From positions 1 through 43,358 of the forward strand of contig CALHAX010000014.1 of assembly GCA_937931785.1 (NCBI GenBank): 43,358 nucleotides of DNA. Reading direction: 5' to 3'. The first letter of the stretch is position 1. Every line of letters begins with the position of its first letter. The position numbers and the translations under genes are program-made. The notes beneath the pieces are model-generated. The model was not told where the DNA came from. It was given only the letters and a program-made list of their open reading frames with translations, and ran no database searches. The stretch is from an uncultured Hyphomicrobiaceae bacterium. GTDB lineage: Bacteria; Pseudomonadota; Alphaproteobacteria; Rhizobiales; CALHAX01. This document shows positions 1-5,148 of this stretch, piece by piece.

Positions 1-13
1 CAAATTGCACGAT

Positions 14-343
14 CTATAGGCCACCAAGAAAGCATACACATTTTTTATTCCGTGAGGATTCAAAATCAAGTCCACTTGCCAAAGGTACTTGTCGGGATCG
101 CGGTTCTAAATATGATCGATGTGAATTTGATATCTGGTTAGCTTCCTTGCTACAGGCAATCACGCAAGTGAACTCTGTATTATCAAACGGCACAATCCCC
201 ACAGGCTTACCTCGCAGATGCGGTCTAGCCTGTTGTTCAACGGATGCAAAGAAGCCGTCAAAATCCAGATACAGATATTCTATTGTCTGAGGCTTTCGCA
301 ACAGATCGTACTCCCATGAACGAATATGAACTAAGGAGAACAA
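14..343 (-). pseudogene. Y-family DNA polymerase (ImpB/MucB/SamB type), N-terminal fragment
   Basis: The 109-residue frame opens like an error-prone Y-family polymerase: residues 23-68 hold the YLDFDGFFASVEQQ metal-binding and fingers start and then a VIACSKEA stretch typical of the palm. After residue 68 the similarity stops. The remaining 40 residues do not continue the family (normally about 400 residues), and a TAG ends the frame at 14-16. It is therefore a remnant broken by deletion or recombination near position 140. The true start may lie at a later codon than the M used here, because family members begin a few residues before YLDFDG. It lies downstream of, and on the same strand as, the XRE repressor gene at 408-647, an arrangement also seen for SOS-type polymerase genes. 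The base composition is AT-rich, unlike the core genes. The family call is firm; the non-functional state is inferred from the truncation. Confidence 0.7.
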
Positions 344-407
344 AATAGGAATAAATACCTAAGAATGTCAATCGGATTTTAATTTCAGAAATAAAATTTC
401 AATTATA

Positions 408-647
408 TTATTTATGCAGCTGTAAATGCTTAATCGCAGAGTTTGGGTCAAAACCAATTGCGTTAGCAAAATCAAATAAATCAACTATGTCTATGCGTCT
501 TTGCCCCGTTTCTACTGTGGCGACAAATGATTGGTGCCTACCTAAAATTTCTGCAACTGCTGTTTGAGTTAAGCCAGCTTCTTTTCGCTTATTAATTATA
601 AAACTAACAAGTTCTAAATGAAGTGGTGAGCCAATGCTCCGCGACAT
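408..647 (-). CDS. Small XRE-family helix-turn-helix transcriptional regulator
   Basis: This 79-residue protein is essentially a lone Cro/C1-type DNA-binding domain. Residues 16-55 form the helix-turn-helix, with the family signs LTQTAVAEILG (helix 2), QSFVATVETGQRRID (recognition helix and following turn) and a short C-terminal helix. There is no sensor or dimerisation domain, so it probably acts as a small homodimeric repressor. It is transcribed away from the gene at 755, and the 107-bp gap between them holds a perfect 7+7 inverted repeat (696-716) that is a natural operator candidate. The polymerase fragment at 14-343 follows it on the same strand. The AT-rich composition fits foreign DNA. 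Which genes it controls is unknown. Confidence 0.85.
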   Translation of the reverse strand: MSRSIGSPLHLELVSFIINKRKEAGLTQTAVAEILGRHQSFVATVETGQRRIDIVDLFDFANAIGFDPNSAIKHLQLHK

Positions 648-695
648 TTGTATTCCTTATTAACAAAAGAACACTTTCAATAATCGCAAAATTAG

Positions 696-716
696 ATTAT
701 CTAAAAATCAGATAAT
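696..716. promoter_or_regulatory. Candidate operator: perfect 7-bp inverted repeat between divergent genes
   Basis: ATTATCT (696-702) and AGATAAT (710-716) are exact reverse complements separated by 7 nt. They lie 49 bp upstream of the XRE gene start and 39 bp upstream of the plus-strand gene at 755. Small XRE repressors usually bind dyads of this size in their own promoter region. The dyad is seen directly; the binding protein is inferred. Confidence 0.5.
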
Positions 717-754
717 TTGAACAAAGAATTGTTATTGTGAAAAGAGAATAACGA

Positions 755-1342
755 ATGAGTTTGAAAAAAAATAATTGGCTTAATCAACGTTGCGGCTATT
801 CAGTTAAGCTGTATCTAGAAAAGTATTGTCCTTTCTCGGGTGTTTTTGAAGTTATCAAATTGATAATAAGAAAAATTATGCATCTTGTGCTCATAACACT
901 ATTAATGATGGTTTCAAGCCTTCATCAATCAGTTGCTCAAGATAAATGTGAGAATATTAGAACGCGTGCTAGTTGCCTGTTTGCAACTGTAAGCTTAAGC
1001 GTTGGTACTCTTAGAGCCCGTAACAGCTTAATAGCATTAAAACAGAAGAATGATATGAATGTAGCGGTGGATAGTGCAAAACAAGAAAATGAGATACCAG
1101 AAAAAAAGAAGTACTTAGTTAATCTATTTCAAACGAAAGCAGAATGTAGATCAAAAATTTATTTAAAAAATATATGCACTAGAATAATCAAACATGTTCT
1201 TTTTATGATAAATCAAGCTTACGTACTTAATCCAAGTTATGAGATATCTACTTCACACAGTGATGTATTAGAATTTATTGAATCAGACAATAAATTGCTA
1301 GAATTACTGTCAGAATATGAGTTGGTTTATTTGGAGCAATAA
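755..1342 (+). CDS. Hypothetical secreted protein, lysine- and asparagine-rich
   Basis: I do not recognise this protein. The full frame is 195 residues. A better start is probably the ATG at 878 (residue 42), because the sequence from there has a classical signal peptide: a short polar start, the hydrophobic run HLVLITLLMMVSSLH and a likely cleavage site after SVAQ. That gives a precursor of 154 residues. The mature part is rich in Lys, Asn, Ile and Cys (Cys in CENI, SCLF, ECRS and ICTR), which could form disulfides in the periplasm. Codon use and base composition are very AT-rich, unlike the core genes, suggesting horizontal transfer. It reads away from the XRE gene with the palindrome 696-716 between them. 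The exact 8-bp inverted repeat GTTGGTTT (1321-1328) / AAACCAAC (1355-1362) spans its 3' end and may form a hairpin, but no T-run follows. Confidence 0.5.
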   Translation: MSLKKNNWLNQRCGYSVKLYLEKYCPFSGVFEVIKLIIRKIMHLVLITLLMMVSSLHQSVAQDKCENIRTRASCLFATVSLSVGTLRARNSLIALKQKNDMNVAVDSAKQENEIPEKKKYLVNLFQTKAECRSKIYLKNICTRIIKHVLFMINQAYVLNPSYEISTSHSDVLEFIESDNKLLELLSEYELVYLEQ

Positions 1343-2460
1343 TAGCTGATTATCAAACCAACTAGCATGCTAAAACGAAAGATAATTACCGTGCTAGATC
1401 AAACAACTTATCACCCATAAATATTCGGTGCCCAACAGCTACTGACGTTAGACACATTTTTCACATCATTACATACAGCAACGACAGCTATGTGCTGTCA
1501 TCTCAATCGGTCAACGCAACACATTGGTTAAGGTTAAATAGTTCGCTTTAGACGAATGAAAGTACTGGTTTAACTATATATGTTGATATCATGTCGCCAA
1601 CGGCCAAAGGAGTTGAAGGGAAGCTTGTAGAAGGCGGTTCAGTGCAAATGTTAGCACTATGGCGCTGGGTATGAATCGGCTCCCTACGAGCTTTAAAATC
1701 AATCCTGCGACAAGAGACGTCCTAGAGATATTTAGTTGTTATTAGAGGACGATCAATTCAAGCGAAATCAGTTTGAAATTAGGCTTTCCACACCGCCAAT
1801 TGATGCAGGAAACCTTAGTGAGAAGTTGTGAATATGACATCGGAAAATGAGTAGTGATATTTAAAAAACCGCAAAATTTTTATCCCACCTCGTACCACTT
1901 TCAAGAATGGCTGAAATCAGGGCTTTTGTGTTACAACTACTCTAAAAAGTAACATTTTGCGTGGTATAAAGCGTTACGGGGCGTTACACAGCGTTACAAA
2001 AACACCCTCTTTTTCGAAATATCACACACAATTGGTCGCTTGTAACACCAAAAACATCACACAAACTATCCATAATTCGACTATAGATTTAATAGTTTTC
2101 CGCCGCACCTTTGAAACTCAGCAATTTCCGGCAAATGTATGGATTTCTCAATGATACATTGTGAACTGTTGTCATGTAAGGAGTGTTGACAGTTAGGATT
2201 GCTAAGAGTGTATCTGGCATATCAATACGCAGGGTATTGGGAGCAAATAGTGTGAAGTTTTTAGTGGGTGGTGGATGTTTGCAAAGGGGCATGCACTTTT
2301 GCCAGTTTAATGTGCTGGTTTTTCCTAGGCTGCTTTTTTAGATGCTCAGAAAGATTAAGCGCAAACTTTATGCAAAGTCATGATAACTAATGAATTAGTG
2401 CTCAGCTTAAGTTATTTTAAAATATAGGATTTTCCTGTTTAGAAACTTTCGAGGTGCTTA
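1343..2460. other. Gene-poor AT-rich stretch of accessory DNA
   Basis: About 1.1 kb without a convincing gene. The open frames here (for example 1957-2154 plus and 2089-2292 minus) are short, lack ribosome-binding sites and show no family I know. The plus-strand frames between about 1590 and 1900 contain short plausible peptide stretches interrupted by stops, so a decayed gene is possible but not identifiable. The only clear structure is the triple GCGTTAC repeat at 1971-1997. The segment ends at the tRNA-Ser fragment, where the composition changes sharply. Confidence 0.6.
1971..1997 (+). repeat. Three GCGTTAC direct repeats at exact 10-bp spacing
   Basis: GCGTTAC occurs at 1971-1977, 1981-1987 and 1991-1997. 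The repeats start exactly 10 bp apart, close to one helical turn, so a protein would contact the same DNA face each time. The unit is shorter than typical replication iterons. No gene starts directly next to it, and the function is unknown. Confidence 0.6.
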
Positions 2461-2501
2461 CCTTAGCAGGGGAGCGCCTTCGACCACTCGGCCACCTCTC
2501 C
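2461..2501 (-). tRNA. Truncated tRNA-Ser(GCU), 5' half only
   Basis: Read on the minus strand from 2501, the sequence has the tRNA-Ser acceptor start GGAGAGG, then TG, the D-arm with GCCGAGTGGTCGAAGGC, and the anticodon stem and loop CTCCC-CTGCTAA with anticodon GCT (2465-2467). The 3' side of the anticodon stem should read GGGAG but reads GGTAA. No variable arm, T-arm (GGTTCGAATCC type) or acceptor 3' strand follows. The gene is therefore cut at about 2460, just beyond the anticodon loop, and cannot give a working tRNA. The anticodon loop is a common crossover site for tyrosine-recombinase integration. The AT-rich DNA begins exactly at the break. An exact inverted repeat, TTAGAAAC (2439-2446) / GTTTCTAA (2508-2515), flanks the fragment and may be chance. 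Confidence 0.75.
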
Positions 2502-2719
2502 ACCGGCGTTTCTAAGGGTTTTGACTGTAAAAACAAGCAAGAACGTGCGGGGAACACACAAGCATTATGCAACGTGACCGATACAAGGTTGCCCATTCCC
2601 GTTCCAACTGCTTTGCTGGCGAAAATGCTCTCCCCCCGTTCACTTGCGACCAAGGCATCACGAACGCGCCACAGGGCAGCGGGACGCTGTCTCCAGTACC
2701 ATGCCCGGAGCCGACCTTC

Positions 2720-3166
2720 ATGATGACTTACTGCGGTGGATGCCAGTGTGGCGCAGTGCGCTTTTCAATCACGGTTCCGGAACTCATTGTCTACGCCTGC
2801 CATTGTCAGGACTGCCAGAAACACACGACATCAGCGTGTGCACTCTCTATTCCGGTAGCTATCTCTGCACTGGAAATCGAGGGACCGTTGAGCATCTTTT
2901 CGCGTGAAACCGACAGCGGCACGACCACAGATTGCCATTTTTGTTCAACCTGCGGCACACGGATTTACCACCAATCGGCGCGTTCCAGGGACATGGTTAC
3001 TTTGAAAGGGGGAACGCTGGACGACACGCGCATGCTTGTCCCGGTCGCACACCTCTGGGTTTCGCGCAAACAATCCTGGATGCAATTGCCTGACGACGTG
3101 CCACAGTTCGAAACACAGCCGGATGACCTGAAAGCATGGCGTGCGGGCTTGATATCGGCGTCTTGA
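2720..3166 (+). CDS. GFA/CENP-V (Mss4-like) zinc-binding protein
   Basis: The 148-residue protein has the full cysteine pattern of the GFA family (glutathione-dependent formaldehyde-activating enzyme/CENP-V fold): Cys8 and Cys10 in GGCQCG, Cys27, Cys29 and Cys32 in CHCQDC, and Cys75 and Cys78 in CSTCG. These bind one or two zinc ions. Family members are annotated as S-(hydroxymethyl)glutathione synthases, but most have no proven substrate, so I give only the family. The ATG at 2720 (or the adjacent 2723) is chosen because the homology starts there and GGAG lies at 2707-2710. The frame is open back to 2567, but that part has no family similarity. It is the first core-type gene right of the truncated tRNA and lies about 115 bp before the ATPase gene on the same strand. 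Confidence 0.85.
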   Translation: MMTYCGGCQCGAVRFSITVPELIVYACHCQDCQKHTTSACALSIPVAISALEIEGPLSIFSRETDSGTTTDCHFCSTCGTRIYHQSARSRDMVTLKGGTLDDTRMLVPVAHLWVSRKQSWMQLPDDVPQFETQPDDLKAWRAGLISAS

Positions 3167-3280
3167 GCCTGAAAAAGCCGTCGTCCCTGGTTGACCGTGA
3201 TCCGACACCGGCGTTTATGGCGGGGATGTCTTCCGCCTTGGCGAGAAGGCGACAGCATCGCAACAATCGGACGCCCCGCC

Positions 3281-4147
3281 ATGAAGTTCAAAACCGGCAA
3301 GGATTTTCTGGATTGGCCCAGCAAGGCGGTGACCGTGTTTGGTATGTCCGGGCTCGGAAAAACATGGCTGGCCAATGAATTGCGGGAGCACGGTTGGTTC
3401 CACTACTCCGCCGACTACCGCATCGGCACGCGGTACATGGGGGAACACATCGTCGACAACTTCAAGCAGGAGGCGATGAAGCTGCCACTGCTCCGCGACC
3501 TCTTGTTGTCAGATTCCATCTACATTTCCTCCAACATGCGGTTCTCGGATCTGTCACCGCTCTCGACCTACCTCGGCAAACCGGGAGACCCGACCAAAGG
3601 CGGGATTTCGTTCGCGGAATACAAACGGCGGCAGGCGCAACATCGCGATGCAGAAATGAACGCCATGCGCGATGTTCCGATGTTCATCGAAAAGGCACGC
3701 ACGATTTATGGGTATGACCATTTCATTTGCGATGCAGGTGGCAGCCTTTGTGAAGTCGTCGATCCGGATAACCCGAATGATCCGGTTCTCAAGGATCTGA
3801 CTGATACAACCGTTCTGGTTCATCTGCGCGGCACTGAAGACGATGCCCGTATGCTTGTTGACCGGTTTTCGAAAGCGCCAAAGCCGATGTACTACAATCC
3901 GGATTTCCTTGATGCGAAGTGGACGGAGTATAAGGCGATGAAAGGGGGGATTGCAGACGATGCTGTTAATCCGGACGACTTTGCCGTTTGGGGTTTCGAG
4001 GAACTTCTGCGTTACCGTCTGCCGATCTATGCCAAAATTGCCGATGGGTTCGGCTATACGATCAACGCTGCCGATCTCGCCGCGGCGAAGACGGACAAAG
4101 ACTTCCTGGCCCTCGTTGCCAGTGCGGTTGATAACGCTGCCGCCTGA
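3281..4147 (+). CDS. P-loop ATPase of unknown function next to metA
   Basis: The 288-residue protein has a clear Walker A motif GMSGLGKT at residues 21-28. The following [19 protein letters not shown] resembles the substrate-facing loop of small-molecule kinases. A hydrophobic strand ending in [13 protein letters not shown] may serve as Walker B. There is no membrane segment, so it should be cytosolic. I recognise it only as an uncharacterised ATPase found near metA in alphaproteobacteria and know no biochemical role. The start at 3281 (MKFKTGKDF) is chosen because the longer frame from 3191 adds 30 residues of low-complexity sequence without family character. metA follows 38 bp downstream on the same strand, so co-transcription is likely and suggests a link to methionine metabolism, which is only inference. 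Confidence 0.8.
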
Positions 4148-4185
4148 TCCCACTTATTGACGACACGCCGATTTGCGAGTTTTCC

Positions 4186-5148
4186 ATGCCCATTCGTATT
4201 GCCAACGACCTGCCCGCACGTCCTGTCCTCGAGACGGAGGGCGTGAATGTAATGTCGGAACTGACGGCAGCGCGCCAGGACATCCGCCCGCTCCGCATCG
4301 CCCTGCTCAACCTCATGCCGACAAAAATCAACACGGAAACCCAGTTTGCGCGACTGATCGGCTCGACTCCGCTTCAGGTCGACCTGTCGCTGGTGCGCAT
4401 GAGCGAGCATGTCTCAAAGAACACGTCGGTCGAACACATGCGGGCGTTCTATCGACCGTGGGACGAGATCAGACACGAGAAATTCGATGGCCTGATCGTA
4501 ACCGGCGCACCGATCGAACTGCTGAACTTCGAGGACGTCGACTATTGGGATGAGTTGTGCCAGATTTTTGACTGGTGCAAGACGAACGTCCATTCGACGT
4601 TGGCTGTGTGCTGGGGGGCCCAGGCGGCATTGCATCATTTCTACGGTGTACCGAAACACGAGTTGACCGAAAAACGTTTCGGGGTGTTCAATCACCAGAA
4701 CCGCCTCCCCGGTTCTCCCATGATGCGTGGCTTTTCCGACCGGTTTTCCATCCCCGTCTCGCGTTGGACGGAAGTGCGCGAAGCCGACTTACCAAAAAAC
4801 TCTGGCCTTGAGGTCCTGATGAGTTCACCGCATGCGGGCCTTTGTCTGGTGAACGATCCAGCGCATCGCGCACTCTACATGTTCAACCATATCGAGTACG
4901 ACACGGATACGCTTGGTGCAGAATACCGGCGTGATATCGAAGCCGGTCGCGAAGCGCGTATGCCACTGGATTATTTTCCCGATGACGATCCAGAGCGCCA
5001 ACCCAGCAATCGCTGGCGTAGCCACGCACATTTGTTTTTCGCGAACTGGATCAATGAAACGTATCAGGGCACGCCCTACGAACTGAACGATATCGGAACC
5101 GGGGCGCAGGGCATGGGCGCGCATGCAGAGCTGCCGGCGGAGGCATAA
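4186..5148 (+). CDS. metA: Homoserine O-acyltransferase, MetA family (predicted O-acetyltransferase)
   Basis: MetA acylates L-homoserine at the start of methionine synthesis in the cytosol. The 320-residue length is close to E. coli MetA (309), and the catalytic triad falls at the same numbers: nucleophile Cys142 in AVCWGAQ, and His235 and Glu237 in FNHIEYD. Residue 111 sets the acyl donor in this family: Gly gives succinyl-CoA use and Glu gives acetyl-CoA use. Here TGAPIELL puts Glu at 111, so I predict a homoserine O-acetyltransferase despite the usual succinyl name. The start ATG at 4186 aligns with the family N-terminus MPIRI. The 38-bp gap upstream is too short for a SAM riboswitch, so if one exists it would be before the ATPase gene. 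ycjX follows 9 bp downstream with its GGCGGAGG ribosome-binding site inside the metA end. Confidence 0.95.

What the first reader, a model, noticed from the sequence alone, without database searches (positions are those of the whole stretch)
2439..2515. AT-rich DNA ends precisely inside a half tRNA-Ser(GCU)
Seen: only the 5' 41 nt of the tRNA gene remain, ending just past the anticodon loop. The sequence left of the break is AT-rich accessory DNA and the right side is core. An exact 8-bp inverted repeat flanks the fragment. Known: tyrosine integrases often cross over at tRNA anticodon loops. Inference: this is an island boundary or a deletion scar, and an intact tRNA-Ser(GCU) should exist at another end or elsewhere.
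Basis: partly seen in the sequence, partly recalled or inferred. Interest (0 to 1): 0.6.

Follow-up and report, generated by a model that had tools for sequence, protein, structure and literature searches.

The report
Displaced 5' half of tRNA-Ser gene
A mobile DNA element appears to have inserted at the anticodon of a serine tRNA gene and pushed the gene's original front half aside; this is an uncommon but already known mode of insertion, and here it marks the edge of an island whose other end is missing from the draft genome.

Summary
The 41-nt 5' half of tRNA-Ser(GCU), with its promoter, lies on the minus strand at 2501-2461. Beyond it the DNA is unrelated and AT-rich (36% vs 57% GC).

The break, two bases past the anticodon loop (CTGCTAAGG|), recurs elsewhere. 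I found 66 similar broken halves (50 distinct flanking arms) in viral contigs and alphaproteobacterial genomes. Most have a tyrosine integrase directly beside the break. Controls for breaks elsewhere in the gene found none. In 15 of 16 genomes with such a half, an intact tRNA-Ser(GCU) also exists. In all 7 where both lie on one contig, the half is upstream on the same strand, 0.5-41 kb away.

So this is most likely the displaced 5' half left by an element whose attP carries promoter plus 5' half (a 'reverse-polarity' anticodon-loop integration; 5' fragments are 159 of 3919 islands in Islander). The integrase and regenerated tRNA are not in this 134-contig draft; several other essential tRNAs are missing too. 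The 8-bp inverted repeat is real but not conserved, so probably chance. It is a new member of a known kind. A mildly interesting by-product: two integrase clades, with int on opposite sides of attP, use this same site.

The parts
2461..2501 (-). 5' half (41 nt) of tRNA-Ser(GCU), displaced fragment of the target gene
   Evidence: sequence; identical to intact genes in relatives up to ...CTGCTAAGG
2461..2469 (-). CTGCTAAGG: anticodon loop (overlap region) plus two stem bases; break right after it, the inferred crossover zone
   Evidence: same break class in 66 other broken halves
2502..2536 (-). retained host tRNA promoter: -35 TTGTTT (2536-2531), -10 TAGAAA (2514-2509), leader CGCCGGT
   Evidence: spacing and CCGGTGG leader shared with relatives
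1..2460 (.). AT-rich element-side arm, truncated by the contig end
   Evidence: 36.4% GC vs 57.1%; no other copy in the genome; no phage DNA match, and in plasmids only the polymerase fragment matches
14..343 (-). fragment of a Y-family (IMS/ImpB type) DNA polymerase gene, only about 45 residues align
   Evidence: Pfam PF00817 E=9e-10, PHROG 1268
408..647 (-). XRE-type helix-turn-helix regulator
   Evidence: Pfam HTH_31/HTH_3, PHROG 1373 transcriptional regulator
755..1342 (+). orphan 195-aa ORF, possibly secreted
   Evidence: no Pfam match, no viral relative, no relative in 396 other genomes of the order
2567..5148 (+). core flank: GFA-domain gene, P-loop protein (3191-4147), homoserine O-succinyltransferase (4186-5148)
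   Evidence: Pfam; P-loop-HTS neighbourhood conserved in 8 order-level relatives

Best explanation
This is one attachment junction of an integrated, possibly decayed, genomic island or prophage. A tyrosine integrase recombined an element attP carrying a tRNA promoter plus the 5' half of tRNA-Ser(GCU) with the intact host gene, crossing over in the anticodon loop. The element's promoter and 5' half were joined to the host 3' half, regenerating the tRNA at the far end of the island. The host's own promoter and 5' half were left here as a 41-nt relic facing the element. Shown: the half gene, its promoter, the compositional step, the recurrent break position, and the complete arrangement in other genomes. 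Inferred: that this genome's left arm is the rest of such an element, and that the regenerated tRNA and integrase lie beyond the contig end.
For: The half ends exactly where relatives' intact genes continue. Scans of viral contigs for breaks around the loop give 1 (after AA), 5 (after G), 23 (after GG) and 21 (after GGG), while scans for breaks just before the loop or at the start of the anticodon stem give 0 true cases. An integrase was found at a fixed place beside the break in most of these loci; six that were tested are all PF00589. 41 of 50 distinct broken halves keep promoter-like hexamers. In 15 of 16 genomes with a half, an intact tRNA-Ser(GCU) exists; in 7 of 7 same-contig cases the half is upstream on the same strand with 0.5-41 kb between. 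The right flank is a conserved core block. Islander lists 159 islands with 5' fragments and 2083 with anticodon-centred sites (PMC4383910).
Against: No intact tRNA-Ser(GCU), no 3' half and no integrase other than two Xer-like proteins are in the assembled genome. No integrase remnant lies in the 2.46 kb captured. None of the 15 order-level relatives examined has this tRNA next to the same core block, so no empty site could be compared.
Confidence: 0.83

Rival explanations
1. Deletion or rearrangement scar: a second tRNA-Ser(GCU) copy covers the function and this copy lost its 3' half by a deletion or other rearrangement not caused by an integrase.
For: No integrase in the 2.46 kb arm; the arm holds a broken polymerase gene and no hallmark mobile gene. 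Short half-to-intact intervals without an integrase exist (L199, L200).
Against: The break falls at the position used by dozens of integrase-bearing elements, which a random deletion would hit only a few per cent of the time. The integrase-free examples still have the half upstream of an intact gene, as a decayed island would.
Confidence: 0.09
2. Assembly chimera or misbinned contig: the AT-rich 2.46 kb was wrongly joined at the half tRNA.
For: Fragmented draft of 134 contigs; the AT-rich DNA is at a contig edge and has no other copy in the genome.
Against: The join falls exactly at a recombination-type break and not at a repeated word: the best other genomic match to the half is a 35-nt stretch of tRNA-Ser(GGA) that does not reach the break.
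Confidence: 0.06
3. A functional split or intron-bearing tRNA whose 3' half is transcribed elsewhere or lies beyond an intron.
For: Promoter and 5' half look intact, and no full-length gene is assembled.
Against: No 3' half anywhere in the assembly; no group I/II intron match; no T-arm in the 2.46 kb; other genomes with the same break have an intact gene.
Confidence: 0.02

Closest known systems
Islands with 5' tDNA fragments at anticodon-centred sites (Islander class; Zhao and Williams 2002 reverse orientation)
   Same: Displaced 5' fragment with host flank, crossover at the anticodon loop, intact gene downstream of the island in comparison genomes
   Different: Here the far end (regenerated tRNA, integrase) is not assembled, so the island itself cannot be delimited
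Viral-contig attP sites carrying promoter plus tRNA-Ser(GCU) 5' half, with an integrase just upstream (L118-L130, L120/L127 group)
   Same: Same half gene, same break after CTGCTAAGG
   Different: No sequence similarity seen between their arms and the window's arm; the window has no integrase in the captured part
Roseobacter-type islands with an integrase directly behind the displaced half (L098, L108, L111, L115, L117)
   Same: Displaced half with host promoter, intact tRNA-Ser(GCU) elsewhere in the genome (on the same contig, further on, in L098, L115 and L117)
   Different: They carry the integrase within 1.3 kb of the displaced half; the window does not

Membership tests
tRNA-targeted genomic island with 5' fragment (Islander definition) | Terminal tDNA fragment next to foreign DNA | tested here: met
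   41-nt 5' half at the AT-rich/core border
tRNA-targeted genomic island with 5' fragment (Islander definition) | Break at a known attachment sub-site (anticodon loop) | tested here: met
   Break two bases past the loop, a recurrent position
tRNA-targeted genomic island with 5' fragment (Islander definition) | Intact cognate tRNA gene at the other end, same orientation, fragment upstream | tested here: inconclusive
   Not in the draft; met in 7 of 7 same-contig cases in other genomes
tRNA-targeted genomic island with 5' fragment (Islander definition) | Tyrosine integrase gene inside the island | tested here: inconclusive
   None in the 2.46 kb captured or elsewhere in the draft besides two Xer-like proteins; the rest of the island is not assembled

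The most novel reading that the evidence does not exclude
The tRNA-Ser(GCU) anticodon loop is a recurrent site in Alphaproteobacteria and their marine phages for elements that replace the promoter and 5' half of this essential tRNA gene. It is used by two separate integrase clades that place int on opposite sides of the attachment core, so a lysogen's only AGY-decoding tRNA runs from a phage-supplied promoter.
Probability: 0.55. Interest if true: 0.42.

Novelty: new member of a known kind. Interest (0 to 1): 0.3.

Why it matters
It gives an exact island boundary in a genome that is the only one held for its family, and shows that a half tRNA at a contig edge can be read as an attachment site even when the rest of the island is unassembled. 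The survey points to a site where phages take over the promoter of an essential host tRNA, which could be tested for effects on AGY codon decoding in lysogens.

Tried and rejected
8-bp inverted repeat as a functional feature: about 1% chance per site, overlaps the -10 box, not conserved. Group I/II intron or split tRNA: no Rfam hit and no 3' half. Integrase remnant in the AT-rich arm: only noise. Relatives of the orphan ORF: none in viral contigs or in 396 other genomes of the order. Homologous junction arm in viral contigs: none. Empty site in relatives: none of 15 carries the tRNA near the same core block. Terminator behind the break: strong in one roseobacter island family only, and not in the window. 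Zhao and Williams 2002 could not be read and is cited through PMC6563490.

Full report
What is there. The window is one whole contig (C14, 43,358 bp) of a 3.66-Mb draft in 134 contigs, 99.3% complete, and the only genome held for its family. On the minus strand, 2501 to 2461 reads GGAGAGGTGGCCGAGTGGTCGAAGGCGCTCCC-CTGCTAAGG, the first 41 nt of tRNA-Ser(GCU), ending two bases past the anticodon loop. Upstream it keeps a promoter in tRNA position and the CCGGTGG leader seen in relatives. Intact genes in order-level relatives continue with GGGAGTA, the variable arm, TTCGAATCC and the acceptor stem; the window continues with unrelated AT-rich sequence. GC is 36.4% left of the break and 57.1% on the right. 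The right flank is core: the P-loop gene and homoserine O-succinyltransferase are neighbours in eight relatives.

The rest of the gene. Neither an intact tRNA-Ser(GCU) nor a 3' half is in the assembly, by tRNA model, by ARAGORN or by T-arm/acceptor pattern. The assembled serine tRNAs are UGA, GGA and CGA. AGY codons make up 171 of 560 serine codons in 28 window ORFs, so the cell should need this tRNA. Asn, Cys, Ile, Ala(TGC) and Arg(ACG) tRNAs are missing from the same list, so the draft is incomplete at tRNA loci.

The same break elsewhere. A pattern for a 5' half ending after GG and not followed by G matched 20 genome loci, 4 of which are tRNA genes with an intact 3' part, and 23 viral contigs. 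Viral breaks one base earlier or later gave 5 and 21, directly after the loop 1. Patterns for breaks just before the loop or at the start of the anticodon stem gave 0 and 3, and the 3 are intact tRNA genes with other anticodons. In all, 66 broken halves with 50 distinct arms were compared; 41 of 50 keep promoter-like hexamers at 16-19 nt spacing. The break is therefore a recurrent event in the anticodon-loop region. Because the patterns fixed the 5' half, other break positions beyond the loop were not sampled.

Integrases. Most of these loci have a tyrosine integrase at a fixed place beside the break. It lies either 0.1-1.3 kb upstream of the promoter and half, pointing to it (arrangement U, viral contigs), or within 1.3 kb behind the break, pointing back to it (arrangement D, islands and some viral contigs). 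Six tested proteins are PF00589. In a tree of 34 integrases U and D separate with one change (support 89/91); long branches make the deep order uncertain.

The complete arrangement. Fifteen of the 16 genomes with a true broken half also hold an intact tRNA-Ser(GCU); the exception is a MAG. In the seven where both lie on one contig, the half is always upstream on the same strand, with 0.5, 2.1, 2.6, 11.5, 34, 38 and 41 kb between. An integrase sits behind the half in four of the six intervals fetched, a fragment in one of these; the 41-kb case has one too. The 2.1- and 2.6-kb intervals have none, so decayed islands of this kind exist.

Interpretation. The window half is best read as the displaced 5' fragment of such an integration. 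Since no integrase lies within 2.46 kb of the break, the element would be of arrangement U, with its integrase at the far end, or decayed. The arm carries a broken Y-family polymerase fragment, an XRE regulator and an orphan ORF, which fits accessory DNA but does not prove a mobile element.

Known ground. Islander counts 159 islands with 5' fragments against 3760 with 3' fragments, and 2083 anticodon-centred sites (PMC4383910). Recombination with the 5' region is described as considerably less frequent, citing Zhao and Williams 2002 (PMC6563490). Lower island yields and split islands in fragmented MAGs are described in PMC9580842. The finding is thus a new member of a known kind. I found no paper in the held library that describes tRNA-Ser(GCU) as a 5'-replacing site of two integrase clades, but only five searches were made.

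Noticed in passing
window 3191-4147: A 318-aa P-loop-like protein without any Pfam match sits next to homoserine O-succinyltransferase and is conserved there at 44-64% identity in eight order-level relatives.
   Followed up: partly
L118-L140, L172-L197: Viral contigs carry a tRNA promoter plus the 5' half of tRNA-Ser(GCU) as attP, with the integrase on either side; the two placements match two integrase clades.
   Followed up: partly
L181, 2297 and flanks: One viral contig has integrase genes of both arrangements on the two sides of the same half tRNA, perhaps a tandem or mosaic element.
   Followed up: no
L099, L107, L108, about 17-45 nt behind the break: A strong hairpin with a T-run follows the displaced half in one roseobacter island family, placed to stop transcription from the orphan tRNA promoter into the facing integrase gene.
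   Followed up: partly
window 14-343: Y-family polymerase reading frame keeps only about 45 matching residues before the similarity stops, close to the contig end.
   Followed up: no
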